Source: Roseateles sp.
GTDB lineage: Bacteria; Pseudomonadota; Gammaproteobacteria; Burkholderiales; Burkholderiaceae_C
DNA length: 64,000 nucleotides
NCBI RefSeq assembly: GCF_019237615.1
Contig: NZ_JAFAGT010000060.1
Location: forward strand, 62,001-126,000
Direction of reading: 5' to 3'
The notes under the pieces are model-generated. The model did not search any database, had not been told where the DNA came from, and saw only the letters and a list, made by a program, of their open reading frames with translations. The position numbers were made by a program, and so were the translations under genes. The first letter of the stretch is position 1. Each line of letters opens with the position of its first letter. Positions 31,219 to 63,327 of the stretch are shown piece after piece.

Positions 31219-31233
31219 AGTAGCAAAACTACA
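31219..31233. promoter_or_regulatory. Candidate alpha-glucan operator 1 (AGTAGCAAAACTACA)
   Basis: Reverse complement TGTAGTTTTGCTACT. It shares the GTAG-N5-CTAC core with seven other sites in the window. It is 26 bp upstream of the pullulanase ATG, where a bound repressor would block transcription. Confidence 0.65.
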
Positions 31234-31295
31234 TCAATGGAAACCATGGTGTAGAACATGCTCGGCATGGCGCTATTCTTCGACGACATTTGTTT

Positions 31296-31310
31296 GGTAG
31301 TTTGATTACA
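31296..31310. promoter_or_regulatory. Candidate alpha-glucan operator 2 (GGTAGTTTGATTACA)
   Basis: Matches TGTAGTTTGACTACA (the site at 45151) at 13 of 15 positions. It lies 35 bp upstream of the ATG of the amylase at 31346, in an AT-richer patch that probably holds its promoter. Confidence 0.65.
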
Positions 31311-31345
31311 CAGACGACTTCGACAGCCGTTTTGCCGCCACCGCC

Positions 31346-32941
31346 ATGCACAAGATGCTTTTGCCCGCCCTCGCGCTTGCCGCCGCCGGTCTCGCGCAGG
31401 CCCAGATCGACACCCGCGCGGTCCCCGCCCAGCCGCAGGCGAGCACGCTGCCAGCGAACTGGCAGCACGGCGTCTTCATGGAGGTCTTCGTGCGCGGCTA
31501 CCAGGACAGTGACGGCGATGGCATCGGCGACCTGCGCGGCCTGACCCGGCGCCTGGACTATCTGCAGAAGCTGGGCATCAGCGGCCTGTGGCTGATGCCC
31601 ATCACCGCCAGCTCGGACCACGATCATGGCTACGCAACGACGGACTACCGCGGCATCGAGCCGCAGTACGGCACGCTGGCCGACTTCGACGCGCTGATCC
31701 GCGAGGCCCACAAGCGCGGCATAGGCATCGTCATGGACTACGTCATCAATCACGCGTCCTGGCAGTTCCCGCCGTTCCAGCAGGCCGTGGCGGACCGCGC
31801 AAGCCCCTGGCGCAGCTGGTTCGTCTGGAACCCAGACCCTGGCCCGGGCTGGGACATCTGGGGCAAGTTTCCCTGGTACGACGCAGCGTGGCAGCCGTGG
31901 ACGTGGACCGGCGAGTGGAAGGACCTGCCGCCCATCAAGCCCGGCTCGCCGGACATCTTCTTCGGCACCTTCGGGCCCCACATGCCCGACTTCAACCTGC
32001 GCAACCCGGAGGTGGTCCGCTATCACGAGGACTCGCTGCGCTTCTGGCTGAACCGCGGCCTGGACGGCTACCGGCTGGACGCCGTGCCCCACCTGATCGA
32101 GAACAGCGCCAAGGACTGGAACGACCAGCCCGAGAGCCGCGCGCTGACCAGGCAATTCCAGGACCTCATCAAGAGCTACCCCGGCCGCTACGTCGTCTGC
32201 GAGGCCACGGCCGAGCCCATCGCCTACGGCAATCCAGAGCTGTGTGGCGGCGCCTTCGCGTTCAACCAGAACTACGAGCTGATGAAGGCGGCAAAGGGCG
32301 ATGCAACGGCCGTGCAGAAGGTGGCCGACTACTACCGGAGCATGTCGCCCACGATGGCGACCTTCCTGCACAACCACGACATCTTCACCGGCCAGCGCGT
32401 CTGGGACCAGTTGCACGGCGACGAGGCCCGCTACCGGCTGGCGGCGGCGAGCTATCTGCTGCTGCCGGGCACGCCCTTCGTCTACTACGGCGAGGAGATA
32501 GGCCAGGCCGGCATAGACGGCAGGCACGACGAGCCGCTGCGCGCGCCCATGAGCTGGACACCCTCCGGCGGGTTCACCACCGCGGCCCAGCCCTTCCGCC
32601 CGCTGTCGCTGAACCGCAGCCGTCACAACGCCGAGAGCCAGCAGCGTGACCCGGACTCGCTGTTCAACTTCTACCGAAAGCTGATCGCGTTGCGCCGCGC
32701 GTCGCCGGCGCTGACGCTGGGCCGCTACGAGGCCGACCAGGTCGACGGCCAGCTGTGGCACTTCCAGCGCGTTCACGGCGGCGAGCGCGTCCTCGTCGCC
32801 ATCAACTACGGCGACACGCCGGCCGCCCTCGAGTTGCCGGCCGGCGCGCGGATGCTGCATCCCAAGCCCGGCGCCGCCGCGCCGGGCCGCACGACGCTGC
32901 CGCCGCTGTCCGTGCGCATCTACCGGCTGGCCGCGCGATGA
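31346..32941 (+). CDS. Exported GH13 alpha-amylase / oligosaccharide glucosidase
   Basis: This 531-residue precursor has a Sec signal (MHKMLLPALALAAAGLAQAQ, cleavage near residue 20). The GH13 barrel follows with VFVRGYQDSDGDGIGDLRGL (the calcium/loop motif of the oligo-glucosidase-like amylases), MDYVINHASW, the nucleophile Asp245 (LDGYRLDAVPHL), acid/base Glu286 (YVVCEATAEP) and Asp345 (FLHNHDIFTG). It should cut alpha-1,4 links of maltodextrins in the periplasm or outside. It is divergent from pullulanase and its stop overlaps the next gene's ATG (ATGA at 32938-32941). Operator 2 lies just upstream. The exact product pattern is not predictable here. Confidence 0.93.
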   Translation: MHKMLLPALALAAAGLAQAQIDTRAVPAQPQASTLPANWQHGVFMEVFVRGYQDSDGDGIGDLRGLTRRLDYLQKLGISGLWLMPITASSDHDHGYATTDYRGIEPQYGTLADFDALIREAHKRGIGIVMDYVINHASWQFPPFQQAVADRASPWRSWFVWNPDPGPGWDIWGKFPWYDAAWQPWTWTGEWKDLPPIKPGSPDIFFGTFGPHMPDFNLRNPEVVRYHEDSLRFWLNRGLDGYRLDAVPHLIENSAKDWNDQPESRALTRQFQDLIKSYPGRYVVCEATAEPIAYGNPELCGGAFAFNQNYELMKAAKGDATAVQKVADYYRSMSPTMATFLHNHDIFTGQRVWDQLHGDEARYRLAAASYLLLPGTPFVYYGEEIGQAGIDGRHDEPLRAPMSWTPSGGFTTAAQPFRPLSLNRSRHNAESQQRDPDSLFNFYRKLIALRRASPALTLGRYEADQVDGQLWHFQRVHGGERVLVAINYGDTPAALELPAGARMLHPKPGAAAPGRTTLPPLSVRIYRLAAR

Positions 32942-34779
32942 AGCCCCTGATCACCCTTGCCACCGCCCTGCTGATGACCCTGCCCACGCTGGCCGCCGAG
33001 ACCAGCCCTGCCCCCCACCGCGTCGAACCGCCCAACTGGTGGATCGGCATGCGCGACAGCTCGCTGCAGCTGATGATCCACGGCGCCGGCATCGCCGATG
33101 CCAAGCCCGTGCTGGCGCCCTACCCCGGCGTCACGCTGAAGGCCAGCCACCGCGCGACCAGCCCCAACTACCTGTTCGTGGACCTCGACGTCACGCCCGG
33201 CGCCAGGCCGGGGGAGCTGACGCTGAGCGTGGGCAGCCAGACGCTGCGCTACCCGCTGCTGGCTCGCGACCCGGGCTCGGCCGGGCGCCAGGGCTTCGGC
33301 CCCGGGGACGCGATCTACCTGGTCGTGCCGGACCGTTTCGCCAAGGGCGCCGACCTGGGCCGGGCCGGCATGAAGGAAGGCGTCGACCGCGGCAACCCCA
33401 ACGGCCGCCATGGCGGCGACCTGGCCGGCCTGCGCCGCCGCCTGGACTACATCGCCGGTCTGGGGTTCACGCAGGTCTGGCCCACGCCGCTGATCGCGAA
33501 CGACAGTGACCAGTACAGCTACCACGGCTATGCGGCAACGGACTTCTACAAGATAGACCCGCGCTTCGGCACGAACGACGACTTCGGCGCCTTCGTGGCC
33601 GAGGCTCGGGCCAGGGGCCTGGGCGTCATCCAGGATGTGGTGTTGAACCACATCGGCATCAACCATGGGTGGATGGCCGACCTGCCCGCGCCGGACTGGG
33701 TCAACCAATGGCCGCAGGGCTATATGGAGACGCACCACGCGCGCATGACGCTGCAAGACCCCTACGCTGCGCCCAGCGACCGCTTGCGCTTCACCGACGG
33801 CTGGTTCGTGCCCGGCATGCCCGACCTGAACCAGCGCCGGCCGGAGCTGGCGACCTATCTGACGCAGATGACGTTGTGGTGGATAGAGCGATACGGCCTG
33901 TCGGGCCTGCGCACCGACACCTACTCCTACTCCGACCGCGACTTCCTGAGCCGCTGGTCGGCCCGCGTGATGCAGGAGTACCCGCGGCTCAACATCGTCG
34001 GCGAGGAATGGAGCGCGCACCCGGCCGTCGTTGCCTATTGGCAGCGAGGCAAACGCAACCACGACGGCTATGTGTCGTCGACGCCCAGCATGATGGACTT
34101 CCCGATGAATTCGAGCCTGCTGGCCGCGTTGACCGAGGGCGACGGTGCCTTCACCGGGCTGACCCGGCTCCACGAAGGCCTGGCGCACGACTTCGTCTAC
34201 CCCGACCCGGCCAACCTCGTGCTGTTCGACGGCAATCACGACACGCCGCGGCTGTTCTCGCTGCTCAGGCGCGACGTGGGCCTGGCGAAGATCGCACTGG
34301 CCTACATCGCCACCACGCGCCGCATCCCCCAGCTGTTCTATGGCAGCGAGATCCTGATGGAGAGCCCCGTCGAGCGCGACGACGGCAAGGTTCGCAGCGA
34401 CATGCCGGGCGGCTGGCCCGGCGACCAGGTCAACGCCTTCACCGGCGCCGGCCTGACGGCCGAACAGCGCGACATGCAGGACTGGGTGCGTCGCCTCTTC
34501 AGCTGGCGCAAGGGCGAACGCCTCATCCACGACGGCGCGCTGATGCAGTACGCCCCGGTGGACGGCGTCTATGTGTTCTTCCGCTACGACGCGAACCGCA
34601 CGGTCATGGTGGTGTTGAACAAGACGGACAGGCCGGTGGCCGTGCCCATCGCCCGGTTCCCGGAGCGCGTGGCCGCCGGTGCGCGGGCGCGCGACGTGCT
34701 CAGCGGCGAGCTGCAGACCTTGGGCGAACGCCTGATCGCACCGGCGCGCAGGCCGTTGATCCTGGACATCGAGCGCTGA
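32938..34779 (+). CDS. Exported cyclomaltodextrinase/neopullulanase-like GH13 enzyme
   Basis: This 613-residue precursor (signal MKPLITLATALLMTLPTLAA) starts with a beta-sandwich that resembles the cyclomaltodextrinase N-terminal domain (residues about 24-105, VEPPNWWIGMRDSSLQLMIH). A GH13 barrel follows: YLVVPDRFAKG, IQDVVLNHIGINHGW, nucleophile Asp327 (LSGLRTDTYSYSD), acid/base Glu356 (IVGEEW) and Asp435 (LFDGNHDTPRLF). Relatives, including the SusA type, hydrolyse cyclodextrins, pullulan or maltodextrins in the periplasm. Its ATG overlaps the upstream amylase stop by four bases, fixing the start and showing co-translation. Confidence 0.92.
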   Translation: MKPLITLATALLMTLPTLAAETSPAPHRVEPPNWWIGMRDSSLQLMIHGAGIADAKPVLAPYPGVTLKASHRATSPNYLFVDLDVTPGARPGELTLSVGSQTLRYPLLARDPGSAGRQGFGPGDAIYLVVPDRFAKGADLGRAGMKEGVDRGNPNGRHGGDLAGLRRRLDYIAGLGFTQVWPTPLIANDSDQYSYHGYAATDFYKIDPRFGTNDDFGAFVAEARARGLGVIQDVVLNHIGINHGWMADLPAPDWVNQWPQGYMETHHARMTLQDPYAAPSDRLRFTDGWFVPGMPDLNQRRPELATYLTQMTLWWIERYGLSGLRTDTYSYSDRDFLSRWSARVMQEYPRLNIVGEEWSAHPAVVAYWQRGKRNHDGYVSSTPSMMDFPMNSSLLAALTEGDGAFTGLTRLHEGLAHDFVYPDPANLVLFDGNHDTPRLFSLLRRDVGLAKIALAYIATTRRIPQLFYGSEILMESPVERDDGKVRSDMPGGWPGDQVNAFTGAGLTAEQRDMQDWVRRLFSWRKGERLIHDGALMQYAPVDGVYVFFRYDANRTVMVVLNKTDRPVAVPIARFPERVAAGARARDVLSGELQTLGERLIAPARRPLILDIER

Positions 34780-34786
34780 AGCACCC

Positions 34787-36760: not shown

Positions 36761-38272
36761 TCAGCCCGGCAGTTTCAGCAGCCCGAACGGCCCCCGCCCC
36801 GCCGCCGCCGTGATCAGCCCCAGCACGCGCGTGGGCTCGCTGCCCAGCCAGTCCCAGCGGAAGCGCCAGCCCCAGTTGCCGCCCAGCACGCCGGGAATGT
36901 TCATGCGGTGGGCGCTGCCCAGGCCCAGCACATCCTGCAGCGGGTAGACGGCCATGTTGGCCACCGAGTTGGCGCAGGCGCGGATCATGGCCCAGTGCAC
37001 GTCGTGCTCGCCGCAGGCGAGGTAGGAGCCCGCGAATGCGCGCTCGCGGGGCCTGGCCTGGTCCCACCAGCCACGCACGGTGTCGTTGTCATGCGTGCCG
37101 GTGTAGGCCACGGACGCGCGAGGCCAGGTATGCGGCAGGAACTCGTGGTCAGCCTCGGCGCCGAACGCGAACTGCAGGATCTTCATGCCGGGGAAGCCAC
37201 AGCCGTCGCGCAGCGCGTGCACGTCGTCGGTGATGAAGCCCAGATCCTCGGCGACGATGGGCAGCGGCCCCAGCGCAGCCTTGATGGCGTCGAACAGCGC
37301 CATGCCGGGACCCGTGACCCAGCGGCCGCGCGTGGCGTCGGGGCTGTCGCCGGGGATCTCATAGTAGCCGGCGAAGCCGCGGAAGTGGTCGATGCGGAAC
37401 ACGTCTGCCTGGCTCAGTGCGCGGCGGATTCGGGCCGTCCACCAGGCGTAGCCCTCCTCGGCCATCCTGTCCCAGCGGTACAGCGGATTGCCCCAGCGCT
37501 GGCCCAGCGGGCCGAGGTCGTCCGGCGGCACGCCGGCCACCACGGTGGTCTGGAAGCTTTCGTCGAGGGCGTAGAGATCGGGGCGCGACCAGCAGTCGGC
37601 GCTGTCGTGGGCGACGAAAATGGGCAGGTCGCCCATCAGGTGTACGCCGCGCGCGTTGGCGTAGGCCTTCAGCGCGCCGGCCTGCTGGTCGAACTGCCAT
37701 TGCACGAACTGCCAGAACGCGATCTCGTCGGCGTACTGCTTGCGGGCCTTGGCCAGGGCCTTGGGCTCTCGCGTTTTCAGGCCGTCGGCCCAGGTCCACC
37801 ATGGCTGGCCGTTCAGCGGCGAGCGTATGGCCATGAAGAGCACGTAGTCGTCCAGCCAGCTCTGCTGCGCCTCGCACCAGGCGGCAAAGGCGTCACGGTC
37901 CACCGCACTGCCGCCCGCGAAGAAGCCGGTGGCGGCAGCGCGCAGTTGCTGCTCGCGCCAGGGCGTGACGCGGCCGTAGTCGACCTGCTCGCCGTTGAAC
38001 GGCGGCACCTCGGGCTGCGCCAGCCATCCCTTGGCGACCAGCGGCTCCAGCGCCACCATCCAGGGGCTGCCGGCAAAGGCCGACACACCCTGGTAGGGGC
38101 TGTCGCCGGGGCCAATGGGCGTGGTGGGCAGCAGCTGCCAGATGGACTGTCCGGCGGCCTGCAGCCAGTCGACGAAGCGGTAGGCGTCGGGCCCGAAGTC
38201 GCCCATGCCATGCGGGCCGGGCAAAGAGGTGATGTGCAGCAGCACACCGGACGAGCGTTGGTTCAGGTTCAT
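36761..38272 (-). CDS. malQ: 4-alpha-glucanotransferase (amylomaltase, GH77)
   Basis: This cytoplasmic enzyme transfers alpha-1,4-glucan segments between maltodextrins and releases glucose, making chains long enough for GlgP. The 503-residue protein is the short amylomaltase form and starts MNLNQRSSGVLLHITSLPGP. Motifs: nucleophile Asp in DVFRIDHFRGFAGYYEIP, acid/base Glu in PIVAEDLGFIT and Asp in AYTGTHDNDTVRGWW. It also has the family stretch GNPLYRWDRMAEEGYAWW. The start overlaps the glgX stop by four bases (38269-38272). It is the last gene of the glgP-glgB-glgX-malQ operon. Confidence 0.97.
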   Translation of the reverse strand: MNLNQRSSGVLLHITSLPGPHGMGDFGPDAYRFVDWLQAAGQSIWQLLPTTPIGPGDSPYQGVSAFAGSPWMVALEPLVAKGWLAQPEVPPFNGEQVDYGRVTPWREQQLRAAATGFFAGGSAVDRDAFAAWCEAQQSWLDDYVLFMAIRSPLNGQPWWTWADGLKTREPKALAKARKQYADEIAFWQFVQWQFDQQAGALKAYANARGVHLMGDLPIFVAHDSADCWSRPDLYALDESFQTTVVAGVPPDDLGPLGQRWGNPLYRWDRMAEEGYAWWTARIRRALSQADVFRIDHFRGFAGYYEIPGDSPDATRGRWVTGPGMALFDAIKAALGPLPIVAEDLGFITDDVHALRDGCGFPGMKILQFAFGAEADHEFLPHTWPRASVAYTGTHDNDTVRGWWDQARPRERAFAGSYLACGEHDVHWAMIRACANSVANMAVYPLQDVLGLGSAHRMNIPGVLGGNWGWRFRWDWLGSEPTRVLGLITAAAGRGPFGLLKLPG

Positions 38273-40341
38273 ACGTGGCGCAAGACGATGAGTGAGCGGG
38301 CCGGCACGTTCAGTGGCTGGCCGGGAAGGACGAGGGGCGCGGCCGATTCGCCGCTGCTGTCGAGCACCAGCCGCCAGGGACCGTTGCAGAGCAGGAAGGG
38401 CAAGGCCTCGGGCTCGGGGTTGAAGACGATCATCAGCCGCGGCGCGTCGGCGCCGGCCTCGCGCAGCTGGGCGCCGAAGGCGCGCTGGCCGGCGTCGTGC
38501 CAGTCATGCGGCGCCATCTCGCGGCCGCTGGGCCCGTACCAGGCGATGCCGGCATCGCCCGGTGCGTTGGCGAACCAGCGCGGGTGGCGCAGCAGCGGCT
38601 CGGCGGCGCGCAAGGCCAACGCCTGGGCTACCAGTTCGGTCATGCGGTCGTCGGCCTCGGGCCAGTTCAGCCAGGCCGTCTCGTTGTCCTGGCAATAGGC
38701 ATTGTTGTTGCCGCGCTGGCTGTTGGCGATCTCGTCGCCGGCGCACAGCATGGGTGTACCCTGGGCCAGCAGCAGCGTCGCCAGCAGCGCGCGGCGCACG
38801 CGCTCGCGGGTGGCGTTGATGGCGGCGTCTGCCGTCGGGCCCTCGGCGCCGAAGTTGGCACACAGCTCGCCGTCGCGGCCGTCGCGGTTGTCCTCGCCGT
38901 TGGCCTGGTTGTGCTTGGTCGAATAGCTCGTCAGGTCGGCCAGCGTGAAGCCGTCGTGCACGGCGACGAAGTTGACCGACGCGGCGGGCCTGCGCTGGCC
39001 ATGGTGAAAGACGTCGCTGGACGCCATGAAGCGCCGCGCCAGCTCACCGCGGCCGACGCCCGCACCGAGCCAGTAGCCGCGCACCGCATCACGGAACTTG
39101 TCGTTCCATTCCAGGAAGCGGCCGGGAAAGCGGCCCAGCTGGTAGCCGTCGTGGCCGGCATCCCAGGGCTCGGCGATCAGGTGCACGCCGGCCAGCACGG
39201 GATCCTGCCGCAGCGCCGTGAAGAAGGCGGCCCCCGGGTCATAGCCCTGGCTGGTGCGGCCCAGCACAGGCGCGAGGTCGAAGCGGAAGCCGTCCACGCC
39301 CAGCTCGGCGACCCAGTAGCGCAGCGAGTCGAGCACGAACTGCGTCACGCGCGGATGGGCGCAGTTCAACGTGTTGCCGCAGCCGGTCAGGTTCTCGCTG
39401 CGGCTGCGGTCCTCGGACACCAGCCGGTACCAGGTCGCGTTGTCCAGGCCACGGAAGGACAGCGTGGGGCCGAACTCGTTGCCCTCCGGCGTGTGGTTGT
39501 AGACGACGTCCAGCACCACCTCCAGGCCGGCTTCGTGCAGCCCATCCACCATGTGGCGGAACTCGGCCGTCACGGCGGTCGGGTCGTCGCGGTGGGTGGC
39601 CTGCGCCCATCGCGGATCCGGGCAGAAGAAGCCCAGCGTGTTGTAGCCCCAGTAGTTTTGCAGTCCGCGCTCGGCGAGATGGGGCTCGGCGATGCAGTAC
39701 TGGATGGGCAGCAGCGACAGCGTCGTGACGCCCAGGCGCCGGAAGTGCGCAATGGCCGCGGGATGGGCCAGGCCGGCGTAGCAGCCACGCAAGTCCTCGG
39801 GCACGCCGGGCAGCAGCCTGCTGAAGCCCTTGACGTGAACCTCGTAGAGCACGATGTCGCTGGCCGCGCGGCGCGGCGGGTGGGCGCGGGCGGGTGCCAC
39901 GGGCATTGGCGCCACGCGCGCCTTCAGCGCCTGCACCGCGTTGTCGCGCATGTCCAGTGAACGCGGACCGTCGGGATGGCCCAGCTCGTAGCCATGGTGC
40001 TCGGCGCGCCAGTCGAAGTGGCCGACGATCTCGCGGGCGTACGGGTCCAGCAGCAGCTTGTGTGGATTGAAGCGCTGGCCCTGCTCCGGCGCATAAGGGC
40101 CATGGGCGCGCAGGCCGTAGACCAGGCCGGGGCCCGCGCCGGGCAGGAAGCCGTGGAAGACGCCATCAGAGGGGCCGCACAGCGCGTAGCGGCGCAGCTC
40201 GCGCTGGCCTTCGGCATCGAAGATGCACAGCTCGATGCGCGTCGCGTGCTCGCTGGCGACGGCGAAGTTGACGCCGCCATCACGGGCAAGCGCGCCCAGC
40301 GGCTCGTGCCAGCCGGGATGCAGGTCAGGCAGGTGCGCCAT
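38269..40341 (-). CDS. glgX: Glycogen debranching enzyme GlgX (GH13_11)
   Basis: This cytoplasmic isoamylase-type enzyme cuts alpha-1,6 branches of phosphorylase limit dextrin. The 690-residue protein has a CBM48 N-terminal domain (VNFAVASEHATRIELCIFDA) and the GH13 barrel: VYEVHVKGFSRLLPGVPEDL, LDVVYNHTPEGNEFGP, nucleophile Asp (VDGFRFDLAPVLGR), acid/base Glu (HLIAEPWDAG) and FVAVHDGFTLADL. The ATG at 40341 (MAHLPDLHPGWHEPLGA) lies 11 bp after the glgB stop; a longer frame runs through glgB and is rejected. Its stop overlaps malQ. Together with GlgP and MalQ it degrades glycogen or imported branched dextrins. Confidence 0.96.
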   Translation of the reverse strand: MAHLPDLHPGWHEPLGALARDGGVNFAVASEHATRIELCIFDAEGQRELRRYALCGPSDGVFHGFLPGAGPGLVYGLRAHGPYAPEQGQRFNPHKLLLDPYAREIVGHFDWRAEHHGYELGHPDGPRSLDMRDNAVQALKARVAPMPVAPARAHPPRRAASDIVLYEVHVKGFSRLLPGVPEDLRGCYAGLAHPAAIAHFRRLGVTTLSLLPIQYCIAEPHLAERGLQNYWGYNTLGFFCPDPRWAQATHRDDPTAVTAEFRHMVDGLHEAGLEVVLDVVYNHTPEGNEFGPTLSFRGLDNATWYRLVSEDRSRSENLTGCGNTLNCAHPRVTQFVLDSLRYWVAELGVDGFRFDLAPVLGRTSQGYDPGAAFFTALRQDPVLAGVHLIAEPWDAGHDGYQLGRFPGRFLEWNDKFRDAVRGYWLGAGVGRGELARRFMASSDVFHHGQRRPAASVNFVAVHDGFTLADLTSYSTKHNQANGEDNRDGRDGELCANFGAEGPTADAAINATRERVRRALLATLLLAQGTPMLCAGDEIANSQRGNNNAYCQDNETAWLNWPEADDRMTELVAQALALRAAEPLLRHPRWFANAPGDAGIAWYGPSGREMAPHDWHDAGQRAFGAQLREAGADAPRLMIVFNPEPEALPFLLCNGPWRLVLDSSGESAAPLVLPGQPLNVPARSLIVLRHV

Positions 40342-40352
40342 TCGAGCCGGGA

Positions 40353-42545
40353 CTAGATCGGGACAAAGAACAGCGTGGCCAGCGGCGGCAGGTTGATCGT
40401 GATGGACAGGCGCCGGCCATGCGCCGGCTGGGCCTGCACCGGCAGGCCCGCGGCCGCGACGCCGTTGCCCATGTTGCTGCCGCCGTAGTAGGCCGAGTCG
40501 GTGTTCAGCGCCTCGCGCCAGGCCGTGACGCCGTCCGGCACGCCCAGCGAATAGCCCTCGCGTGGCACGGGCGTCATGTTGCAGACCACCAGCACCATGC
40601 GGCCCGTGCCGTCGCGGCGCACCCAGGCGTAGATGGAATGCTCGGCGTCGTGCGAGCTGATCCACTCGAAGCCGCCGCTCTCGCAGTCCAGCCGGTGCAG
40701 CGCCGCATGCTCGCGGTAGAGCTTGTTGAGGTCGCGCACCAGGCGCTGCACGCCGGCATGGCGATCGTCCTCCAACAGGCCCCAGGGCAGCGCCTCGGCA
40801 TGGTTCCATTCGTTGCGCTGCGCGAACTCCTGGCCCATGAAGAGCAGCTTCTTGCCCGGATGGCCCCACATGAAGCCGTAGTAAGCGCGCAGGTTGGCAA
40901 ACTTTTGCCAGTCGTCGCCCGGCATCTTGCCGAGCATGGAGCCCTTGCCGTGCACCACCTCGTCGTGCGAGATGGGCAGCATGAAGTTCTCGCTGAACGC
41001 ATAGATCAGGCCGAAGGTCATCTTGTCGTGATGCCAGCGGCGGTTGATCGGGTCCTCGGCCATGTAGCGCAAGGTGTCGTTCATCCAGCCCATGTTCCAC
41101 TTGTAGTGAAAGCCCAGGCCGCCGGCATAGGTGGGCGCCGAGACGCCGGGGAAGCTGGTGCTCTCCTCGGCCACCGTGACGGCGCCCGCGATCTCGCCCA
41201 CATGCTCGTTCATCTCACGCAGCATGGCGATGGCCTCAAGGTTCTCGCGGCCGCCGCGGAGGTTGGGGATCCAGTGCCCTTCGGGCCGCGAGTAGTCGCG
41301 GTAGAGCATGCTGGCCACTGCGTCCACGCGCAGGCCGTCCACGCCCCAGCGCTCTATCCAGTACAGCGCGCTGCCGATCAGGAACTCGCGCACCTCGGTG
41401 CGGCCGAAGTTGTAGATCAGCGTGTTCCAGTCGCGATGCAAGCCCTCCTTGGGGTCAGCGTACTCGTACAGCCGCGTGCCGTCGAACTCGGCCAGGCCAT
41501 GGGCATCCATGGGGAAATGCGCCGGCACCCAGTCCAGCAGCAGGCCCAGGCCCCGCTCGTGGCAGGCCTTGACGAAGCGCGCGAAACCCTCGGGCGGGCC
41601 GAAACGGGCGCTGGGCGCGTACATGCCCAGCGTCTGGTAGCCCCAGGAGGCGTCGAAGGGATGCTCGGTGACGGGCATCAGCTGCACATGCGTGAACCCC
41701 ATGTCGGCCGCGTAGGCGGGCAACTGCTCGGCGAGTTCGTCCCAGGTTGGAAACCCCTCGTTGGCGCCTGCCACGCCGCGGCGCCAGGAGGCGGCGTGCA
41801 CCTCGTAGACGCTGATGGCCACGTGGCGCTGGTTGGCGCGCTCACGCTGGCGCGGCAGCGGCGTGGGCTCGGGCAGGGGTGCGACGATGCTGGCCGTCTC
41901 GGGCCGCAGCTGGGCGCGGCGGGCGTAGGGGTCGGCCTTCAGCGGCAGCAGCGCGCCGTTGCCATTGACGATCTCGAACTTGTAGAGATCGCCCTCGCCC
42001 GCATGCGGCACGAAGATCTCCCACACGCCGGCCGCATGCCGCAGCCGCATGGCGTGGCGGCGACCGTCCCAGTTGTTGAAGCTGCCGACCACGCTGACGC
42101 GCCGTGCATTGGGCGCCCAGGCCGCGAAGCGCACGCCGCTGACCTCGCCATGCTGGACCAGGTGCGCGCCCAGGCTCAGCCAGGGGCGGAAGTTGCGCCC
42201 CTCGGCGAAGGCCGTCAGGTCCTCGTCGGCCAGCTGCGGGTAGAAGGCATAGGGGTCGGCATACACCGCCTCGTCACCCTCCCCGCCCTGCCAGCGCACC
42301 GCCAGCCGGTAGTCGAAACGGTGCTTGCGGCGCGGCACCTGGGCTTCGAAGAAGCCGGGACGGCGCTGCGCCATCTCGACAAGGCGCTTGCCGCTGTCGG
42401 CGTCGAGCAGCGCCACGTCCGTCGCGCCGGGCAGCAGCGCGCGCGCCCACAGCCTCCCCGCCTCGTCCGCGTGCAGCCCCAGCCGGGAGAAGGGATCGGC
42501 GTGGCGGCCCGCCAGCAGGGCGTCGAGGTCGGCTTCGTTGAGCAT
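40353..42545 (-). CDS. glgB: 1,4-alpha-glucan branching enzyme (GH13_9)
   Basis: This cytoplasmic enzyme makes alpha-1,6 branches in glycogen. The 730-residue protein has two N-terminal beta domains (N1 and CBM48; VRFAAWAPNARRVSVVGSFN) and the catalytic barrel. Motifs: nucleophile Asp in WGVDGLRVDAVASMLYRDYS, acid/base Glu in VTVAEESTSFPG and Asp in FMLPISHDEVVHGKGSM. Length is that of the N1-containing E. coli type. The ATG overlaps the glgP stop by one base (TGATG). It is the only glycogen-building gene here; glgA and glgC are not in the window, so synthesis of linear glucan must be encoded elsewhere, or the enzyme remodels imported dextrins. Confidence 0.97.
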   Translation of the reverse strand: MLNEADLDALLAGRHADPFSRLGLHADEAGRLWARALLPGATDVALLDADSGKRLVEMAQRRPGFFEAQVPRRKHRFDYRLAVRWQGGEGDEAVYADPYAFYPQLADEDLTAFAEGRNFRPWLSLGAHLVQHGEVSGVRFAAWAPNARRVSVVGSFNNWDGRRHAMRLRHAAGVWEIFVPHAGEGDLYKFEIVNGNGALLPLKADPYARRAQLRPETASIVAPLPEPTPLPRQRERANQRHVAISVYEVHAASWRRGVAGANEGFPTWDELAEQLPAYAADMGFTHVQLMPVTEHPFDASWGYQTLGMYAPSARFGPPEGFARFVKACHERGLGLLLDWVPAHFPMDAHGLAEFDGTRLYEYADPKEGLHRDWNTLIYNFGRTEVREFLIGSALYWIERWGVDGLRVDAVASMLYRDYSRPEGHWIPNLRGGRENLEAIAMLREMNEHVGEIAGAVTVAEESTSFPGVSAPTYAGGLGFHYKWNMGWMNDTLRYMAEDPINRRWHHDKMTFGLIYAFSENFMLPISHDEVVHGKGSMLGKMPGDDWQKFANLRAYYGFMWGHPGKKLLFMGQEFAQRNEWNHAEALPWGLLEDDRHAGVQRLVRDLNKLYREHAALHRLDCESGGFEWISSHDAEHSIYAWVRRDGTGRMVLVVCNMTPVPREGYSLGVPDGVTAWREALNTDSAYYGGSNMGNGVAAAGLPVQAQPAHGRRLSITINLPPLATLFFVPI

Positions 42546-45150: not shown

Positions 45151-45165
45151 TGTAGTTTGACTACA
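45151..45165. promoter_or_regulatory. Candidate alpha-glucan operator 3 (TGTAGTTTGACTACA)
   Basis: This is the best copy: perfect 6-bp arms TGTAGT/ACTACA around TTG. It is 83 bp upstream of the glgP ATG, within the glgP/malK divergent region. I use it as the type sequence for the other seven sites. Confidence 0.75.
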
Positions 45166-45239: not shown

Positions 45240-45268
45240 TTGTTATAGGTCGAGATGAAATGTATATT
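45240..45268 (+). promoter_or_regulatory. Sigma70-type promoter of malK-E-F-G
   Basis: TTGTTA (45240-45245) and TATATT (45263-45268) are separated by 17 bp in an AT-rich patch 90 bp upstream of the malK GTG. The -10 hexamer lies inside candidate operator 4, so binding there should block RNA polymerase. Confidence 0.55.
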
Positions 45269-45275
45269 GTCTACA
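45261..45275. promoter_or_regulatory. Candidate alpha-glucan operator 4 (TGTATATTGTCTACA)
   Basis: It matches the site at 45151 at 12 of 15 positions, keeping TGTA and CTACA arms. It overlaps the predicted malK -10 element TATATT and the expected transcription start, as for a repressor. Confidence 0.65.
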
Positions 45276-45357: not shown

Positions 45358-46475
<1,118 letters not shown>

Positions 46476-46479
<4 letters not shown>

Positions 46480-47651: not shown

Positions 47652-49287
<1,636 letters not shown>

Positions 49288-49288
<1 letters not shown>

Positions 49289-50178
49289 TGGCAATCGTCC
49301 TCGGCAAACAGGCCCGCTGGCGCACGCTCGCCGCACATGCGGTGATGTGGGTCTTCATCGCCATCACGCTGTTCCCGCTGCTGGCCGTCGTGTCCATCTC
49401 GCTGCGCCCCGGCAACTTCGCCACCGGCAGCCTGATCCCGGCCGAGATCAGCCTGGAGCATTGGAAGCTGGCCCTGGGCATCCCGTACCAGGCCGCCGAC
49501 GGCAGCCTGGTGCAGCCGCCCTTCCCGGTGCTGAGCTGGCTGTGGAACTCCGTCAAGATCGCCACCACCTCGGCCCTCCTCATCGTCGCCATCTCGACGA
49601 CGGCGGCCTACGCGTTCGCACGCCTCAAGTTCCGCTTCAGCAAGCCCGTGCTGAACGGCATGCTGCTGCTGCAGATGTTCCCGCCGGTGCTGGCGCTGGT
49701 GGCCATCTACGCCATCTTCGAGACCATAGGCAGCTATGTGCCGGCGCTGGGCATAGAGACGCACGCGGGCCTGGTGCTGGCGTACCTCGGTGGCATCGCC
49801 ACCCATGTTTGGACCATCAAGGGCTATTTCGAGACGATCCCGGTGGAGATCGAGGAGAACGCCAAGGTCGACGGCGCAACACATTGGCAGGCCTTCTCGC
49901 GCGTGCTGCTTCCCATGGCCCTGCCCATCCTGATGGTGGTCTTTGTCCTGGCCTTCATCGGCACCATCATCGAGTACCCGGTAGCCAGCATCCTGCTGCG
50001 CGAGGAAGCCCACCTGACGCTGGCCGTGGGCTCCAAGTATTTTCTGCACGACCAGCGTTTCCTGTGGGGCGACTTCGCCGCCGCGGCCGTGCTGTCCGGC
50101 CTGCCCATCACGGCGGTCTTCCTGCTTGCCCAGCGCTGGATCGTCTCCGGCCTGACGGCGGGCGGCGTCAAAGCTTGA
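49288..50178 (+). CDS. malG: Maltose ABC transporter permease MalG
   Basis: This is the second channel subunit, with 296 residues and six membrane segments. It starts [20 protein letters not shown]. The EAA motif is [20 protein letters not shown]; MalG phrases include [20 protein letters not shown] and [20 protein letters not shown]. The ATG shares one base with the malF stop, which fixes the start. An amylase gene follows after only seven bases, so the importer and an extracytoplasmic GH13 enzyme are made together. Confidence 0.97.
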
Positions 50179-58853: not shown

Positions 58854-61667
58854 TCAGAGCTTGTAGCTCAGGCCCAGCAAGTAGGACTTGCCGAACTTCT
58901 TGCGGTCGGTGGTCTGTCCGTTGACAGCGTCGTAGTACGAGAACCACGGGTTGGTCAGGTTGCTGCCCTGGGCCAGGATGGACAGGCCCTTGAACATGCC
59001 GCTGCCGAACTCATAGGAGGTCTGGAAGTCGACGCCGGTCGAGCCCTTGATGTAGACCAGCTGGTTGCGGTCCTGGTAATCGTTGATGGAACCCAGGAAG
59101 TCCGAGCGCTTGCGCGCGGCGACGGCAATCTGGAAGCCGTTCATTTCATAGTAGGCGCGCAGGTTGGTGACCTGCTTGGACAGGCCCGGCAGCGGGATCG
59201 TGGCGGTCTTGACGTTCTGCGTCGAGAAACCCGAGGCCGGCAGCGCGACGGAGCTGGAGGTGTTGGAGTAGTTGACCATGACGCCGAAGCCGTTCAGCCA
59301 GTTCGCGGCCAGCGACAGCGGCACGTTCAGCGCCAGCTCCATGCCACGGATCGAGCCACCCGAGCCGTTGACCGGCTGCGTGAACACGCCCACCGTGCTG
59401 CCGCTCGGCGGCAGCGACGTGCTCGGCGTCACATAGGCCTTGAAATCGAACGGTTGCCCGACGTTCAGGATGTAGGTGCTCAGCTGCTTGTAGAAGCCCG
59501 CGACGCTGACGTAGCCCTTGTTGCCGAAGTACTTCTCGTACGACAGGTCGAAGGCGTTCGCGCGGAACGGCTCCAGCCTCGGGTTGCCGCCGGTGCCGTT
59601 CAGGCGTTGCGGGCTGATGTCGGTCTTCAGCGACATCTCCACGGAGGTCTTCATGTCCTCCATGTTGGGCCGGGCCATCACACGGCCCAGGCCCAGGCGC
59701 AACACGCTGTCGCCGGTCAGCTGGGTCAGCAGGTTCAGGTTGGGGAGGAAGTCGTTGAAGCTGTGGCTGTCACCCATCGGGATGTAGGTGCAGCTCTTGG
59801 TCGCGTCATTGCAGGTGGCGTTGTCGACGCGGAAGCCGGAGCTGTGCTGCTGCGTATGCTGCATCTGCAGGCCGATGTTGCCGCGCACGTCCATTCCGCC
59901 AATCTGGGCTTCGATGTCGCCCTTGACGTAGGCGGTCGTGACCTTCTCCCTCACGCCCCAGCTCTTGCTGGCGATGTCCAGCACGGTCCAGGGAATCAGG
60001 TCGTAGACGGTACCCAGCGACCCGGCCGGGTTCCAGTTCAGCGTCGGGATGCCGGTGAGGCCGCCCACACCCACCGAGGCGTTCGGGATCTCGGCGTACG
60101 CGAGGCGGTCCTTGATCGTCCCGTTGGCGTTGAGGGCCCCCTTCACGGCCAGCGCGCCTTCGACGGCGACACGGTCCTTGGTGCGGTTGGTGAAGTTGCC
60201 ACCGAACTCCACCGCCGCAACCGGCCCCCAGGAAACCTCGGTCTTGCCCGACAGGCGCAGCGCCTTGATCTTGTCCTTGGTGGTCGGATTGGCGTAGTAG
60301 CCGTCCTGCACGCCGTTGGCGCCGGCCCAGCCCTGCACGTCGGTCAGCTTGATCAGCTTGGGATCGGCGTAGTTCAGGCCGCTGGTGTACTTCACGTCGG
60401 CCAGGTTGCTGCCGTCGAAGCCGGAGAAGCTGATGGTGTCGGCGTTGTTCAGCGTGTTGCCCGGCAGACCCGCCGTGGTCTCGTAGCGCACCGAGTGCTT
60501 GTCGACCGCGGAGTAGGACAAGTCACCCTTCAGCGTCCAGCCACCCGTCTTCAGCTTGTTGGCCCAGCCGATGGACTTCAGCGTGTCCGTGTAGTCCTCG
60601 TTGTGGTTGCGGATCACTCCCTTCCAGTTCGTGAAGGTGCCGGAGGTGGCGATGCCGTTGGAGACCGTCGCGTTGATCAGCGCGCCGCCGACGTCGTTCG
60701 CCCCCGCGGACAGGCCGCCGATGGGGCCTTCCAGGCCGCGCTTCTTGACCGAGAAGTTGCCCTTGGAATAGAAGATGTCGGCCGTCGACTCGAACTCCGC
60801 GTTCGGGCGGAACTGCAGCACGGCCATCGCGCCGGTGCGGTCGAAGTCGGTGCTCTCGATGTCGGTGGTGAAGCCGCCGGGCGTCTTCACGGTGCCGCCG
60901 TTGTAGGGCACGTCCGCAACCCAGCCACCCCAGGTGTTGAAGTTCGGGCGCCCGCCGCCGTTGGACTTGTGCTTGGTCAGGCCCAGCGCCACACCGAACG
61001 TGCGGTCTGCGAACTGGTCGATGTAGGACACCGAGGCGCGATCACCGCTGCCGGTGGTGAAGCCAGGCTGGTTCTCGGCCTTGGTGTTGTGCTCCTTGCG
61101 GTAGGTGACGGCCGCGCCGCGCTTGGCGAAGTTCAGCGGCCGCACCATCTGCAGATCTATCGTCGATGACAGTCCCTGGCCGACCAGCGACGCGTCGGGC
61201 GTCTTGTAGATGACGATGCCGCCCAGCAGTTCGGCCGGGTACTGGTCGAACTCGACGCCGCGGCCCGTGCCTGTAGACGCCTGTTCGCGGCCGTTGAGCA
61301 GGCCGCCATTGAAGTCCGGCGACATGCCGCGCACGCTGACCTGCTGCGCGCGACCGGTGACAGGGCTGAGCTGGATCGCAACGCCGGGCAGGCGCGAGAC
61401 CGATTCGGCGACGCTCGCGTCGGGCAGCTTGCCGATGTCCTCGGCCGAGATGGCCTCGACGATGGAGTCGCTGTTCTTCTTCACCGAGATCGCGTCCTCG
61501 ATGCCCTTGCGGATGCCGGTGACGGTCACCGTCTCGAGTTGCTTGGGCTGCTGGGCCTGTGCGGACGCGCCCGCGGCGGCGATCAACAGCGTGCAGCCTA
61601 TGGCCACCGGGCTGATGCGGAAGGACATGGCAGCCGGCATGCTGCGCCCGTCGTTGCTCTTGGTCAT
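58854..61667 (-). CDS. TonB-dependent outer-membrane receptor, probably for malto-oligosaccharides
   Basis: This energy-coupled outer-membrane transporter has 937 residues. It has a signal peptide ending near residue 37 (GASAQAQ). The TonB-box-like ETVTVTGIRKG is followed by the plug domain (SISVKK-like stretch AISVKKNSDSIVEAISAEDI, GKLPDASVAESVSRLPGVAI, VSVRGMSPDFNGG) and a 22-strand-type barrel to the C terminus (KKFGKSYLLGLSYKL). The plug phrases are those of the Caulobacter/Xanthomonas carbohydrate receptor group, including MalA-like receptors. GAGGAG lies upstream of the ATG at 61667, which is chosen over a longer frame. It is first in an operon with the CGTase-like, halogenase and amylase genes, and two candidate glucan operators lie upstream. 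No SusD partner is present. Confidence 0.94.
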   Translation of the reverse strand: MTKSNDGRSMPAAMSFRISPVAIGCTLLIAAAGASAQAQQPKQLETVTVTGIRKGIEDAISVKKNSDSIVEAISAEDIGKLPDASVAESVSRLPGVAIQLSPVTGRAQQVSVRGMSPDFNGGLLNGREQASTGTGRGVEFDQYPAELLGGIVIYKTPDASLVGQGLSSTIDLQMVRPLNFAKRGAAVTYRKEHNTKAENQPGFTTGSGDRASVSYIDQFADRTFGVALGLTKHKSNGGGRPNFNTWGGWVADVPYNGGTVKTPGGFTTDIESTDFDRTGAMAVLQFRPNAEFESTADIFYSKGNFSVKKRGLEGPIGGLSAGANDVGGALINATVSNGIATSGTFTNWKGVIRNHNEDYTDTLKSIGWANKLKTGGWTLKGDLSYSAVDKHSVRYETTAGLPGNTLNNADTISFSGFDGSNLADVKYTSGLNYADPKLIKLTDVQGWAGANGVQDGYYANPTTKDKIKALRLSGKTEVSWGPVAAVEFGGNFTNRTKDRVAVEGALAVKGALNANGTIKDRLAYAEIPNASVGVGGLTGIPTLNWNPAGSLGTVYDLIPWTVLDIASKSWGVREKVTTAYVKGDIEAQIGGMDVRGNIGLQMQHTQQHSSGFRVDNATCNDATKSCTYIPMGDSHSFNDFLPNLNLLTQLTGDSVLRLGLGRVMARPNMEDMKTSVEMSLKTDISPQRLNGTGGNPRLEPFRANAFDLSYEKYFGNKGYVSVAGFYKQLSTYILNVGQPFDFKAYVTPSTSLPPSGSTVGVFTQPVNGSGGSIRGMELALNVPLSLAANWLNGFGVMVNYSNTSSSVALPASGFSTQNVKTATIPLPGLSKQVTNLRAYYEMNGFQIAVAARKRSDFLGSINDYQDRNQLVYIKGSTGVDFQTSYEFGSGMFKGLSILAQGSNLTNPWFSYYDAVNGQTTDRKKFGKSYLLGLSYKL

Positions 61668-61766: not shown

Positions 61767-61781
61767 TGTATCAAAACTAGA
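61767..61781. promoter_or_regulatory. Candidate alpha-glucan operator 5 (TGTATCAAAACTAGA)
   Basis: It matches the reverse complement of the site at 45151 at 11 of 15 positions. It is the weakest of the eight copies. It lies 99 bp upstream of the TonB receptor ATG. Confidence 0.45.
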
Positions 61782-61920: not shown

Positions 61921-61935
61921 TGTAGCTCAACTACA
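61921..61935. promoter_or_regulatory. Candidate alpha-glucan operator 6 (TGTAGCTCAACTACA)
   Basis: Perfect TGTAG/CTACA arms around a 5-bp centre. It lies 253 bp upstream of the receptor ATG and 154 bp from operator 5, a spacing that could allow looping. Confidence 0.7.
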
Positions 61936-62101: not shown

Positions 62102-63094
62102 TCAGGCCTCGGCTTGTTCCAGCGCTAGCGCGGCGCCAGACAGTGCGGCCAGCGTGTCCGTGATGAGGACCGTGGGGATGCCCGCCAGGAAGGACTGGAA
62201 GCGCCCCTTGGCTTCGAAGCGATGGCGGAACTCCGACCGGAAGAAGCGCTCGCCAAGGCGCGGCACGATGCCGCCGCCGATGAAGACGCCGCCACGCGAA
62301 CCCAGCGTCAACGCGACGTTGCCGGCAAAGCCACCCAGCATGGCGCAGAAGGTATCCAGCGCACGAGCACAGGTCGGCGACTCGCCTGCCAGGCCCAGGG
62401 CCACGATCTGCTCGGTAGACAGGACGCCGACATCCTCACCCTCGCCCAACACCGTGGCCACGGCGCGGCACAACACCGGCAGACCTATGCCGGACAGGAA
62501 GCGCTCGGCCGACACATGCACGAAATCGCGGCGCGCCTGGTTCAGCACGGCAGCCTCGAAGTCATCGGCCGGCGCCAGCGTCGCATGCCCACCCTCCCCC
62601 GGCAGCGCCAGCCAGCAGCCGGGCGCCCGAACAACGCCACCCACGCCCAAGCCGGTGCCCGGGCCGATGACAGCCAAGACGGTGCCCACCGCCACCTCGC
62701 CGGCAGCCGGCGGCGGAGCGCCCCAGGCGCGCAGTTGGTCCGGGCGCAGCCGCGGCAGAGACAACGCCTGGGCCTCAAAGTCGTTCAGGCAGAGCAGCGT
62801 CTGCAGCCCCAACTCCTCCTGCGTGCCGGCACGCGAGAAGCTCCACGCACCATTGGTCAGGTCGATGCGGTCGCCGTCCAGCGCAGTCGCGAGCGCAAAG
62901 GCCGCGCTGCGCGGCCTGGGGCTGCCCGGCGCCTGGCCGTCCAGATAGGCCCGCGCAGCGGCGGCGGGGCCGGCATGCCCGGCCACGGGCAGCACGCGCA
63001 CATCCTCCACCGGGGCACCAGGGCCGGCCACGGTCCCGAAGCGAGCATTGGTGCCGCCGACATCGGCCACTAGCCAGGGAAAGGCGGCGCTCAT
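62102..63094 (-). CDS. glk: Glucokinase (Glk family), first copy
   Basis: This cytoplasmic enzyme phosphorylates glucose with ATP. The 330-residue protein starts MSAAFPWLVADVGGTNARFG and shows the phosphate-1 motif VADVGGTNARF, the catalytic-Asp region LCLNDFEAQALSLP, ATP-binding GPGTGLGVGG, the sugar-binding Glu/His motif LPGEGGHATLAP and the adenosine motif GGVFIGGGIVPRL. It belongs to the Glk (non-ROK) family. The ATG at 63094 is the family start; a longer frame is rejected. It is divergent from a second glucokinase gene, and candidate operators lie between the two. Confidence 0.94.
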   Translation of the reverse strand: MSAAFPWLVADVGGTNARFGTVAGPGAPVEDVRVLPVAGHAGPAAAARAYLDGQAPGSPRPRSAAFALATALDGDRIDLTNGAWSFSRAGTQEELGLQTLLCLNDFEAQALSLPRLRPDQLRAWGAPPPAAGEVAVGTVLAVIGPGTGLGVGGVVRAPGCWLALPGEGGHATLAPADDFEAAVLNQARRDFVHVSAERFLSGIGLPVLCRAVATVLGEGEDVGVLSTEQIVALGLAGESPTCARALDTFCAMLGGFAGNVALTLGSRGGVFIGGGIVPRLGERFFRSEFRHRFEAKGRFQSFLAGIPTVLITDTLAALSGAALALEQAEA

Positions 63095-63190
63095 GCCCAA
63101 GCTCCCGATACTACGGCGATGGGGTGGAATTGCAGGGTTCGGGCTTGGACGGGCACGGATCGAGAAGGCGTGGTTTCGGGCTCGCCGGAC

Positions 63191-63205
63191 GGTAGCAAAA
63201 CTACA
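63191..63205. promoter_or_regulatory. Candidate alpha-glucan operator 7 (GGTAGCAAAACTACA)
   Basis: Identical to operator 1 except at the first base. It is 96 bp upstream of the minus-strand glk ATG. Confidence 0.65.
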
Positions 63206-63312
63206 CACCTTCGACAATACAGAGCCGCCCTGAGCGGGCGCCAATCAACTGCAAATCGCTTCTGCGACTCGACCGAGGCTCGCGCCACGGGGAAAATCGC
63301 CCCTTCGCAAGC

Positions 63313-63327
63313 TGTAGTGGAGCTACA
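63313..63327. promoter_or_regulatory. Candidate alpha-glucan operator 8 (TGTAGTGGAGCTACA)
   Basis: Perfect TGTAG/CTACA arms; the centre differs from the AT-rich centres of the others. It is 88 bp upstream of the plus-strand glucokinase ATG. Confidence 0.62.

What the first reader, a model, noticed from the sequence alone, without database searches (positions are those of the whole stretch)
31219..63327. Eight copies of a 15-bp palindrome TGTAG-N5-CTACA define a candidate alpha-glucan regulon
Sites at 31219, 31296, 45151, 45261, 61767, 61921, 63191 and 63313 share GTAG/CTAC arms at fixed spacing. All lie in intergenic regions of the glucan locus, two per region, in front of pullulanase/amylase, glgP/malK, the TonB receptor and the two glucokinases. 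I noticed none in the left half. Odd-length symmetry with a 5-bp centre differs from the usual LacI-type even palindromes with central CG. No regulator gene is in the window, so the factor is encoded elsewhere.
Basis: partly seen in the sequence, partly recalled or inferred. Interest (0 to 1): 0.85.

Follow-up and report, generated by a model that had tools for sequence, protein, structure and literature searches.

The report
Starch-gene switch sites for glucokinase-fused repressor
Eight short mirror-image DNA sites in front of a bacterium's starch-use genes are very probably the docking sites of a gene-control protein that is physically fused to the sugar enzyme glucokinase, and whose usual sugar-sensing pocket looks rebuilt.

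Summary
In detail: all eight sites exist as stated, are the eight best matrix hits in the window, are intergenic, and are conserved footprints at the same promoters in same-genus relatives. Exact GTAG-N5-CTAC occurs six times in the 4.8-Mb genome, five here. The interpretation needs correction. The factor is not LacI-like and not elsewhere: the second "glucokinase" (63416 onward) starts a 628-aa glucokinase–RpiR–SIS fusion whose DNA-binding domain begins 421 bp past the window edge. The motif is the 15-bp TGTAGT-N3-ACTACA class proven for the RpiR regulator RccR, and 73 of 80 fusion loci carry it within 400 bp upstream of the fusion; in two distant fusion lineages it precedes zwf. A second, zwf-linked HexR-like paralog keeps 9 of 9 KDPG-contact residues, while edd and ppc carry a different palindrome (GTAA-N5-TTAC). 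The fusion keeps only 2 of 9; five fusions of other lineages keep 4 to 6, 18 of 20 unfused relatives 7 to 9. Best reading: a HexR/RccR-type regulator fused to glucokinase, re-targeted to alpha-glucan use, with changed sensing. Binding, direction of control and effector are inferred.

The parts
31219..31233 (.). operator AGTAGCAAAACTACA, 27 bp upstream of the pulA start (31192, - strand)
   Evidence: both sites of this pair in 6 of 6 relatives covering the region; footprint
31296..31310 (.). operator GGTAGTTTGATTACA, 36 bp upstream of the GH13 start (31346, + strand)
   Evidence: degenerate; present in 6 of 6 relatives that cover it
45151..45165 (.). operator TGTAGTTTGACTACA (perfect arms), 84 bp upstream of glgP start (45067, - strand)
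45261..45275 (.). operator TGTATATTGTCTACA, containing the predicted -10 of malK
   Evidence: present in 10 of 10 relatives
45240..45268 (+). sigma-70-like promoter TTGTTA-17-TATATT of malK; -10 lies inside the operator
   Evidence: consensus match only
61767..61781 (.). operator TGTATCAAAACTAGA, 100 bp upstream of the probable TonB receptor start
   Evidence: degenerate but footprinted
61921..61935 (.). operator TGTAGCTCAACTACA (perfect arms), second site of the TonB gene
63191..63205 (.). operator GGTAGCAAAACTACA, 97 bp upstream of stand-alone glk (63094, - strand)
63313..63327 (.). operator TGTAGTGGAGCTACA, 89 bp upstream of the glucokinase-RpiR fusion gene (63416, + strand); proposed autoregulation site
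   Evidence: homologous loci
63416..64000 (+). in-window part of the 628-aa glucokinase-RpiR(HTH_6)-SIS fusion, the proposed regulator; gene continues to window coordinate 65302
   Evidence: L030:4417-6303
62102..63094 (-). stand-alone glucokinase
58854..61667 (-). TonB-dependent receptor (TonB-Xanth-Caul type); mechanical ORF starts at 61763, probable start 61667 (MTKSND..., after an AGGAGA-like ribosome site; inference)
42545..45067 (-). glgP-type alpha-glucan phosphorylase
45358..50178 (+). malK, malE, malF, malG maltose/maltodextrin ABC transporter
36761..42545 (-). malQ, glgX, glgB, in line with glgP
28502..31192 (-). pullulanase-type alpha-1,6-glucosidase
31346..34779 (+). GH13 (TreS/alpha-glucosidase-like) and cyclomaltodextrinase-type genes

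Best explanation
The eight palindromes are operators (TGTAGY-N3-RCTACA) of a HexR/RccR-type RpiR regulator whose gene is the second 'glucokinase' of the locus: one chain of glucokinase, RpiR helix-turn-helix and SIS domain. It binds its own promoter and those of glk, the TonB receptor, glgP-glgB-glgX-malQ, malK-malEFG, pulA and GH13 genes. Most likely it represses: the malK site covers the predicted -10. When maltodextrin uptake and breakdown deliver glucose, the signal reaches this protein and the locus is released. The KDPG pocket that triggers RccR is largely gone in the fusion, so the signal is probably not KDPG; glucose or phosphorylation flux at the fused kinase is my favoured substitute. 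A separate zwf-linked HexR-like protein with an intact pocket probably serves edd-eda and ppc through GTAA-N5-TTAC sites. Shown: gene structure, motif, conservation, linkage of motif and regulator gene, pocket changes. Inferred: binding, repression, effector, and the partner of the GTAA sites.
For: Domains: Glucokinase 9-323, HTH_6 336-406, SIS 458-585; PRK14101 'bifunctional transcriptional regulator/glucokinase' 823 bits. Motif: RccR 15-bp sites before aceE are TGTAGTTTTACTACT and TGTAGTAAAACTACA, 68 bp apart, binding shown by SPR and footprints (PMC5489143, passages). Linkage: 73 of 80 fusion loci (record titles include Roseateles, Pelomonas, Paucibacter, Mitsuaria, Rubrivivax, Undibacterium) have a TGTAGYN3RCTACA site with up to 1 mismatch within 400 bp upstream of the fusion start. 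Of the 7 misses, L126 has it before pulA in an apparent pulA-fusion operon, L169 before a glk-fusion pair, L154 at -513, L152 at -5589 and weakly at -336. Distant fusions: TGTAGTTTAACTACA (L267) and TGTAGTAATGCTACA (L263) about 55-75 bp before the zwf match of zwf-fusion clusters. Genome level: exact motif in 4 of 5 other fusion-bearing genomes versus 19 of 114 without a fusion (Fisher 0.005); 7 of those 19 have glk and an RpiR gene as neighbours. Only two PF01418 genes in the genome at E 0.001; the other is zwf-linked with no such site nearby. Pocket.
Against: No binding or expression data. L145, L147 and L171 carry the fusion with no site of this form upstream in the fetched flank. 19 fusion-less genomes also carry exact copies, so the motif is not exclusive to fusions, and RccR, with the same site, is unfused. 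NCBIfam cut-offs are not reached (PRK14101 823 vs 920; HexR PRK11302 236 vs 296). 20 of 80 fusion loci had no labelled alpha-glucan gene or TonB receptor in the fetched flank at my cut-off (some contigs are short), so starch linkage is usual, not universal. The fusion/motif test rests on 5 genomes, one of them (G136) of the window's own fusion group.
Confidence: 0.85

Rival explanations
1. The sites are bound by the unfused, zwf-linked HexR-like paralog (or by both paralogs), with KDPG as the inducing signal.
For: It is an RpiR protein 45% identical to the fused half with 9 of 9 RccR KDPG-contact residues; unfused RccR binds this type of site.
Against: No such site near the zwf-hexR pair (top scores 6.3 in L108, 9.3 in L229). 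The edd promoter, an expected target, has none in 20 of 20 genomes (three loci have a 2-mismatch match 0.9-1.4 kb away from edd) but has GTAATATGGTTAC in 20 of 20. GTAAYNNNRTTAC occurs twice in the genome, before edd and ppc. Five same-family genomes with an RpiR protein 41-44% identical and no fusion hold one TGTAGN5CTACA between three of them, not of the Y/R form, and no TGTAGYN3RCTACA in the other two. Its recognition segment differs: SKPTVVRFCRSVGYDG against SQPTVIRFCRSLGCEG in the fusion.
Confidence: 0.1
2. The fused protein is the regulator but still senses a phosphosugar (KDPG, glucose-6-phosphate or similar) in its SIS domain; the pocket changes only retune specificity.
For: R152 and S183 (RccR numbering) kept in 81 of 81 fusions, and the substituted positions are themselves conserved (Y for S139 in 80 of 81, R for H164 in 80 of 81), as expected for a new ligand rather than decay.
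Against: S139, H148, H164, S188 and K270 are kept in 0 of 81 (K270 lies in a poorly aligned end). In RccR S188A and K270A stopped the KDPG response and S139A, H148A, H164A abolished DNA binding (PMC10810197 passages). Three of the four phosphate-binding serines are changed in the window's protein.
Confidence: 0.4
3. A LacI-family or other regulator encoded elsewhere binds the sites.
For: LacI regulators often govern maltodextrin genes (PMC4052901, PMC2996990 passages); the genome has 8 LacI HTH genes.
Against: None of the 8 is on this contig; the motif is odd-length without a central CG; it matches a proven RpiR site class and lies before the fusion gene in 73 of 80 loci.
Confidence: 0.04
4. 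Chance repeats or a non-regulatory repeat family.
For: Short motif; three of eight are degenerate.
Against: 5 of 6 exact genome copies in 0.67% of the genome; phylogenetic footprints. Of the 19 other places with up to one mismatch to TGTAGYN3RCTACA in the genome, 10 had a locus and were checked: 9 lie in predicted genes.
Confidence: 0.01

Closest known systems
RccR (RpiR family, Pseudomonas)
   Same: 15-bp TGTAGT-N3-ACTACA operator, paired copies before a promoter, autoregulation, RpiR HTH plus SIS (PMC5489143 passages)
   Different: unfused, KDPG-responsive with nine contact residues, also uses 28-bp sites (exact TGTAG-N18-CTACA not found in the window), controls aceEF and glyoxylate/gluconeogenic genes; here the protein is fused to glucokinase, keeps 2 of 9 contacts and sits at starch genes
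HexR (RpiR family, Proteobacteria)
   Same: RpiR regulator of glucose catabolism with targets such as zwf and glk; lineage-specific regulon expansions reported (PMC5343134 passages)
   Different: HexR targets named there are zwf-pgl, edd, eda, glk, pykA; here the edd promoter has no GTAG site in 20 of 20 genomes and a separate zwf-linked HexR-like gene exists; the Pseudomonas HexR site TTGT-N7/8-ACAA has no exact match in the window
Glucokinase-HexR fusion of Burkholderia/Paraburkholderia type (PRK14101)
   Different: there zwf-linked; here starch-linked; score below the PRK14101 cut-off; pocket changed more (2 of 9 vs 4 of 9 kept)
MalR (LacI family, Shewanella) maltodextrin regulon
   Same: functional counterpart: TonB receptor and maltodextrin enzymes under one regulator (PMC2996990 passages)
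   Different: regulator of another family
ROK repressors such as Mlc and NagC (recalled, not tested)
   Same: sugar-kinase-like fold combined with a DNA-binding domain
   Different: ROK repressors have another HTH and no SIS domain; here an apparently complete glucokinase is fused to an RpiR regulator

Membership tests
HexR/RccR-type RpiR regulators | RpiR HTH (PF01418) followed by SIS (PF01380) | tested here: met
   65.8 bits and 56.5 bits, both over cut-off
HexR/RccR-type RpiR regulators | 15-bp TGTAGT-N3-ACTACA-type operator at own promoter | tested here: met
   window 63313; 73 of 80 homologous loci within 400 bp, up to 1 mismatch; binding itself not testable
HexR/RccR-type RpiR regulators | nine KDPG-contact residues of RccR | tested here: not met
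   2 of 9 in the window's protein; the zwf-linked paralog has 9 of 9
HexR/RccR-type RpiR regulators | control of Entner-Doudoroff genes | tested here: not met
   no GTAG-type site (up to 2 mismatches) at the edd promoter in 20 of 20 genus genomes; other Entner-Doudoroff genes were not tested in all genomes
HexR/RccR-type RpiR regulators | NCBIfam HexR model PRK11302 cut-off | tested here: not met
   236 vs 296 bits; the zwf-linked paralog also misses it, 252 bits
Bifunctional glucokinase/transcriptional regulator (PRK14101) | glucokinase + RpiR + SIS in one chain | tested here: met
Bifunctional glucokinase/transcriptional regulator (PRK14101) | curated score cut-off 920 bits | tested here: not met
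   823 bits; 1 of 120 order genomes reaches it
RccR | 28-bp site class TGTAGT-N16-ACTACA | tested here: not met
   no exact TGTAG-N18-CTACA in the window
LacI-family operators | even palindrome with central CG and a LacI gene nearby | tested here: not met
   odd 15-bp motif; none of 8 LacI genes on the contig
HexR/RccR-type RpiR regulators | direct binding and ligand response | not testable with these tools
   needs purified protein

The most novel reading that the evidence does not exclude
A transcription factor in which sensing has moved from its own sugar-phosphate pocket to a fused metabolic enzyme: once glucokinase and an RpiR regulator merged, the KDPG pocket was free to erode, and in the Roseateles group the kinase's own glucose occupancy or turnover now gates repression of a whole starch regulon. 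Loss of pocket residues in all 86 fused proteins compared (81 of the window's group, 5 of other lineages), with retention in 18 of 20 unfused ones, is the trace of that hand-over.
Probability: 0.3. Interest if true: 0.82.

Novelty: new variant of a known kind. Interest (0 to 1): 0.6.

Why it matters
It gives a candidate regulator, a defined operator and a target list for alpha-glucan use in a widespread environmental genus. It also offers two paralogous RpiR regulators in one cell whose proposed sites differ mainly at one arm position (GTAG vs GTAA), and a natural series of unfused, adjacent and fused glucokinase-regulator genes in which the ligand pocket degrades with fusion. That makes it testable whether an enzyme can take over ligand sensing for a repressor. 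In the searches made (listings capped at 20 rows) no listing, abstract or passage I saw described such a starch regulon or the pocket change. The main HexR survey (Leyn 2011) is not held and RegPrecise could not be consulted, so the motif-family assignment may already be listed there.

Tried and rejected
LacI family: rejected. AbiEi operator at C59: the only other exact genome copy, treated as unrelated. Exact matches to Pseudomonas HexR sites TTGT-N7/8-ACAA, RccR 28-bp sites and GTAAT-N3-ATTAC: none in the window. GTAG-type sites at the edd promoter: none in 20 genomes. Helical phasing between paired sites: spacings 66 to 324 bp in 56 loci with exactly two upstream sites; values cluster but the loci are related, no firm conclusion. 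Several first annotation queries found nothing, probably wrong strand or frame; corrected with a gene call and later searches. One search stored the helper code under a module name that clashed; renamed. A first pocket check across other lineages did not turn minus-strand loci and was redone. Rows dropped: one search aligned own plus 9 of 10, 7 of 9 and 8 of 9 relatives for three regions (coverage filter) and no relative for pulA/GH13, redone with 6 of 6. The 20 unfused RpiR proteins were picked by hand from the higher-scoring C-terminal-half matches, whose list is itself capped; lower-scoring ones were not compared. R277 and K270 are uncertain because the C-terminal ends align poorly. Structure prediction was not run: no result it could give here would separate the rivals.
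Full report
Observation. The eight sites are at the stated positions. Five have exact GTAG-N5-CTAC, three are degenerate. In the whole 4.80-Mb genome exact GTAG-N5-CTAC occurs six times, five of them in this 32-kb span; the sixth precedes an AbiEi/AbiEii pair. With TGTAGYNNNRCTACA at up to one mismatch the genome has 24 places, five of them here; of the other 19, ten had a locus held and were checked: nine lie in predicted genes, one is intergenic; nine were not checked. A matrix from the eight sites ranks them first to eighth in the window (19.6-25.3; ninth 12.0), with nothing above 10.6 in the left half.

Conservation. Exact TGTAG-N5-CTACA is present in 20 of 20 genus genomes including the window's own (1 to 4 copies each, mostly 3), largely with recurring letters and spacing. 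In ten relatives, both sites of every pair were found wherever the fetched stretch covered the region (6/6, 10/10, 9/9, 9/9; scores 14.5-25.3). Intergenic alignments show the sites as islands: 28/30, 29/30 and 28/30 invariant columns against 75/260, 45/408 and 33/291 elsewhere (own plus 9, 7 and 8 relatives), and 26/30 against 20/123 for pulA/GH13 (own plus 6 relatives). The degenerate sites 45261 and 61767 are about as well kept as the perfect ones, so their departures look functional; 45261 contains the predicted -10 of malK, TTGTTA-17-TATATT.

Locus. The genes are a pullulanase, a GH13 enzyme, a cyclomaltodextrinase-type gene, malQ, glgX, glgB, glgP, malK-malE-malF-malG, further GH13 amylases, a tryptophan-halogenase-family gene, a TonB receptor and a glucokinase. 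Distances from site to predicted start: pulA 27 bp, GH13 36, glgP 84, malK 83, TonB 100 and 254 (start taken as 61667), glk 97, fusion 89 bp. So each divergent promoter has one site and TonB has two.

Regulator. The second 'glucokinase' is the start of a 628-aa protein: glucokinase (9-323), RpiR helix-turn-helix (336-406), SIS (458-585), best NCBIfam match PRK14101 'bifunctional transcriptional regulator/glucokinase' (823 bits, cut-off 920). Segments that I recall as catalytic in E. coli glucokinase (NDFTA, EGGHV, and the E before SGPG) are kept in the alignment, so the kinase is probably active; not tested further.

Motif identity. RccR, an RpiR regulator, binds 15-bp TGTAGT-N3-ACTACA sites; its aceE promoter has TGTAGTTTTACTACT and TGTAGTAAAACTACA 68 bp apart, binding shown by SPR and footprinting (PMC5489143, passages). 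The window sites are the same sequence class. LacI regulators have even palindromes in 1251 of 1303 cases (PMC4052901, passages), and no LacI gene lies on this contig.

Motif and fusion gene. In 80 loci encoding the fusion, the best 80 of 231 confirmed stretches, 73 have a site with at most one mismatch within 400 bp upstream of the fusion start. Of the seven others, L126 has the sites before pulA in an apparent pulA-fusion operon, L169 before a glk-fusion pair facing malK-like and, more weakly matched, malE- and amylase-like genes, L154 at -513, L152 at -5589 and weakly at -336; L145, L147 and L171 have none of this form upstream in the fetched flank. 60 of 80 have a labelled alpha-glucan gene or TonB receptor in the fetched flank, 46 if TonB and malK are not counted. 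In other families of the order, two fusion genes sit behind zwf with TGTAGTTTAACTACA (L267) or TGTAGTAATGCTACA (L263) about 55-75 bp before the zwf match, and two lie in stretches with TGTAGTTTGACTACT farther off (L265, L270); L264 has only a one-mismatch TGTTGTTTGACTACA about 6 kb upstream. Exact TGTAGYNNNRCTACA is found in 4 of 5 other fusion genomes and 19 of 114 without a fusion (Fisher 0.005); 7 of those 19 have glk and an RpiR gene as neighbours, so the motif seems older than the fusion. Control of zwf may likewise be the older job and starch control a re-targeting; no tree was built to test the order of events.

Paralog. The genome has one other PF01418 gene, directly behind zwf, 45% identical to the fused half. 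No GTAG-type site is near it. GTAAYNNNRTTAC occurs exactly twice in the genome, before edd-eda and before ppc (the ppc frame is held only in part); the pattern read backwards also occurs twice, so it is the positions, not the number, that speak. GTAATATGGTTAC is before edd in 20 of 20 genus genomes. A weaker relative, TGTAACTAAGTTTCG, lies between zwf and tal. I infer that the unfused protein reads GTAA-N5-TTAC and the fusion reads GTAG-N5-CTAC; the first assignment is not tested. The recognition segments differ (SKPTVVRFCRSVGYDG and SQPTVIRFCRSLGCEG).

Sensor. RccR contacts KDPG through S139, H148, R152, H164, S183, S185, S188, K270 and R277 (PMC10810197, passages). The zwf-linked paralog has 9 of 9; the window's fusion has R152 and S183 only. 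Over 81 fusions of this group the letters are kept in 0, 0, 81, 0, 81, 51, 0, 0 and 54 of 81, the last two at poorly aligned ends; replacements are themselves conserved, for example Y for S139 in 80 of 81. Five fusions of other lineages keep 4 to 6 of 9, all without S188. Of 20 unfused RpiR proteins of the order, picked by hand, 18 keep 7 to 9, including those encoded next to glk, and two keep 4 and 5. Alanine at R152, S183, S185, S188, K270 or R277 made RccR almost unresponsive to KDPG, and at S139, H148 or H164 abolished DNA binding. KDPG is therefore an unlikely effector for the fused protein.

Mechanism, with status. Shown: sites, conservation, gene structure, linkage of motif and regulator gene, pocket changes. 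Inferred: the fusion binds the sites as a dimer or tetramer (RccR is a tetramer in its KDPG complex), represses the promoters including its own, and is released when sugar from alpha-glucans arrives; because the SIS pocket is altered, glucose binding or phosphorylation by the attached kinase is proposed as the signal (probability about 0.3), with a phosphosugar or other ligand in the SIS domain as the main alternative (about 0.4).

Novelty. A glucokinase-HexR fusion is already named in Paraburkholderia (PMC12568896, passages) and HexR regulons are known to expand by lineage (PMC5343134, passages). What I did not find in the searches made is a fusion-controlled starch regulon or the pocket change. 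New variant of a known kind.

Noticed in passing
L230 (C18:9108-9122, about 53 kb before the window start) and L232 (C55:6958): A second palindrome, GTAAY-N3-RTTAC, occurs exactly twice in the genome, before edd-eda and ppc, and is before edd in 20 of 20 genus genomes; possible operator of the zwf-linked HexR-like protein.
   Followed up: partly
L031:6232-6246 (C59): CGTAGTTTGGCTACG a few bases upstream of an AbiEi/AbiEii type IV toxin-antitoxin pair; possibly the AbiEi operator or chance.
   Followed up: no
L058:6252 and 6352; L064:1766 and 1866: In two relatives a second pullulanase-like gene beside pulA also has GTAG-type sites in front, suggesting growth of the regulon by gene duplication.
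   Followed up: no
window 34890-35795: Apparent fusion of a GNAT acetyltransferase with a Rnk/GreA-GreB C-terminal domain.
   Followed up: no
window 54873-56393: A tryptophan-halogenase-family gene inside the starch locus next to the amylases and TonB receptor.
   Followed up: no
L238, L239 and table: Several Burkholderiales have glk and an RpiR gene as adjacent separate frames, the likely state before fusion.
   Followed up: partly
L122 (JAIPCJ010000014.1): A contig filed under a Methylotenera MAG encodes a fusion protein 92% identical to the window's with the Roseateles-type sites; probably misbinned.
   Followed up: no
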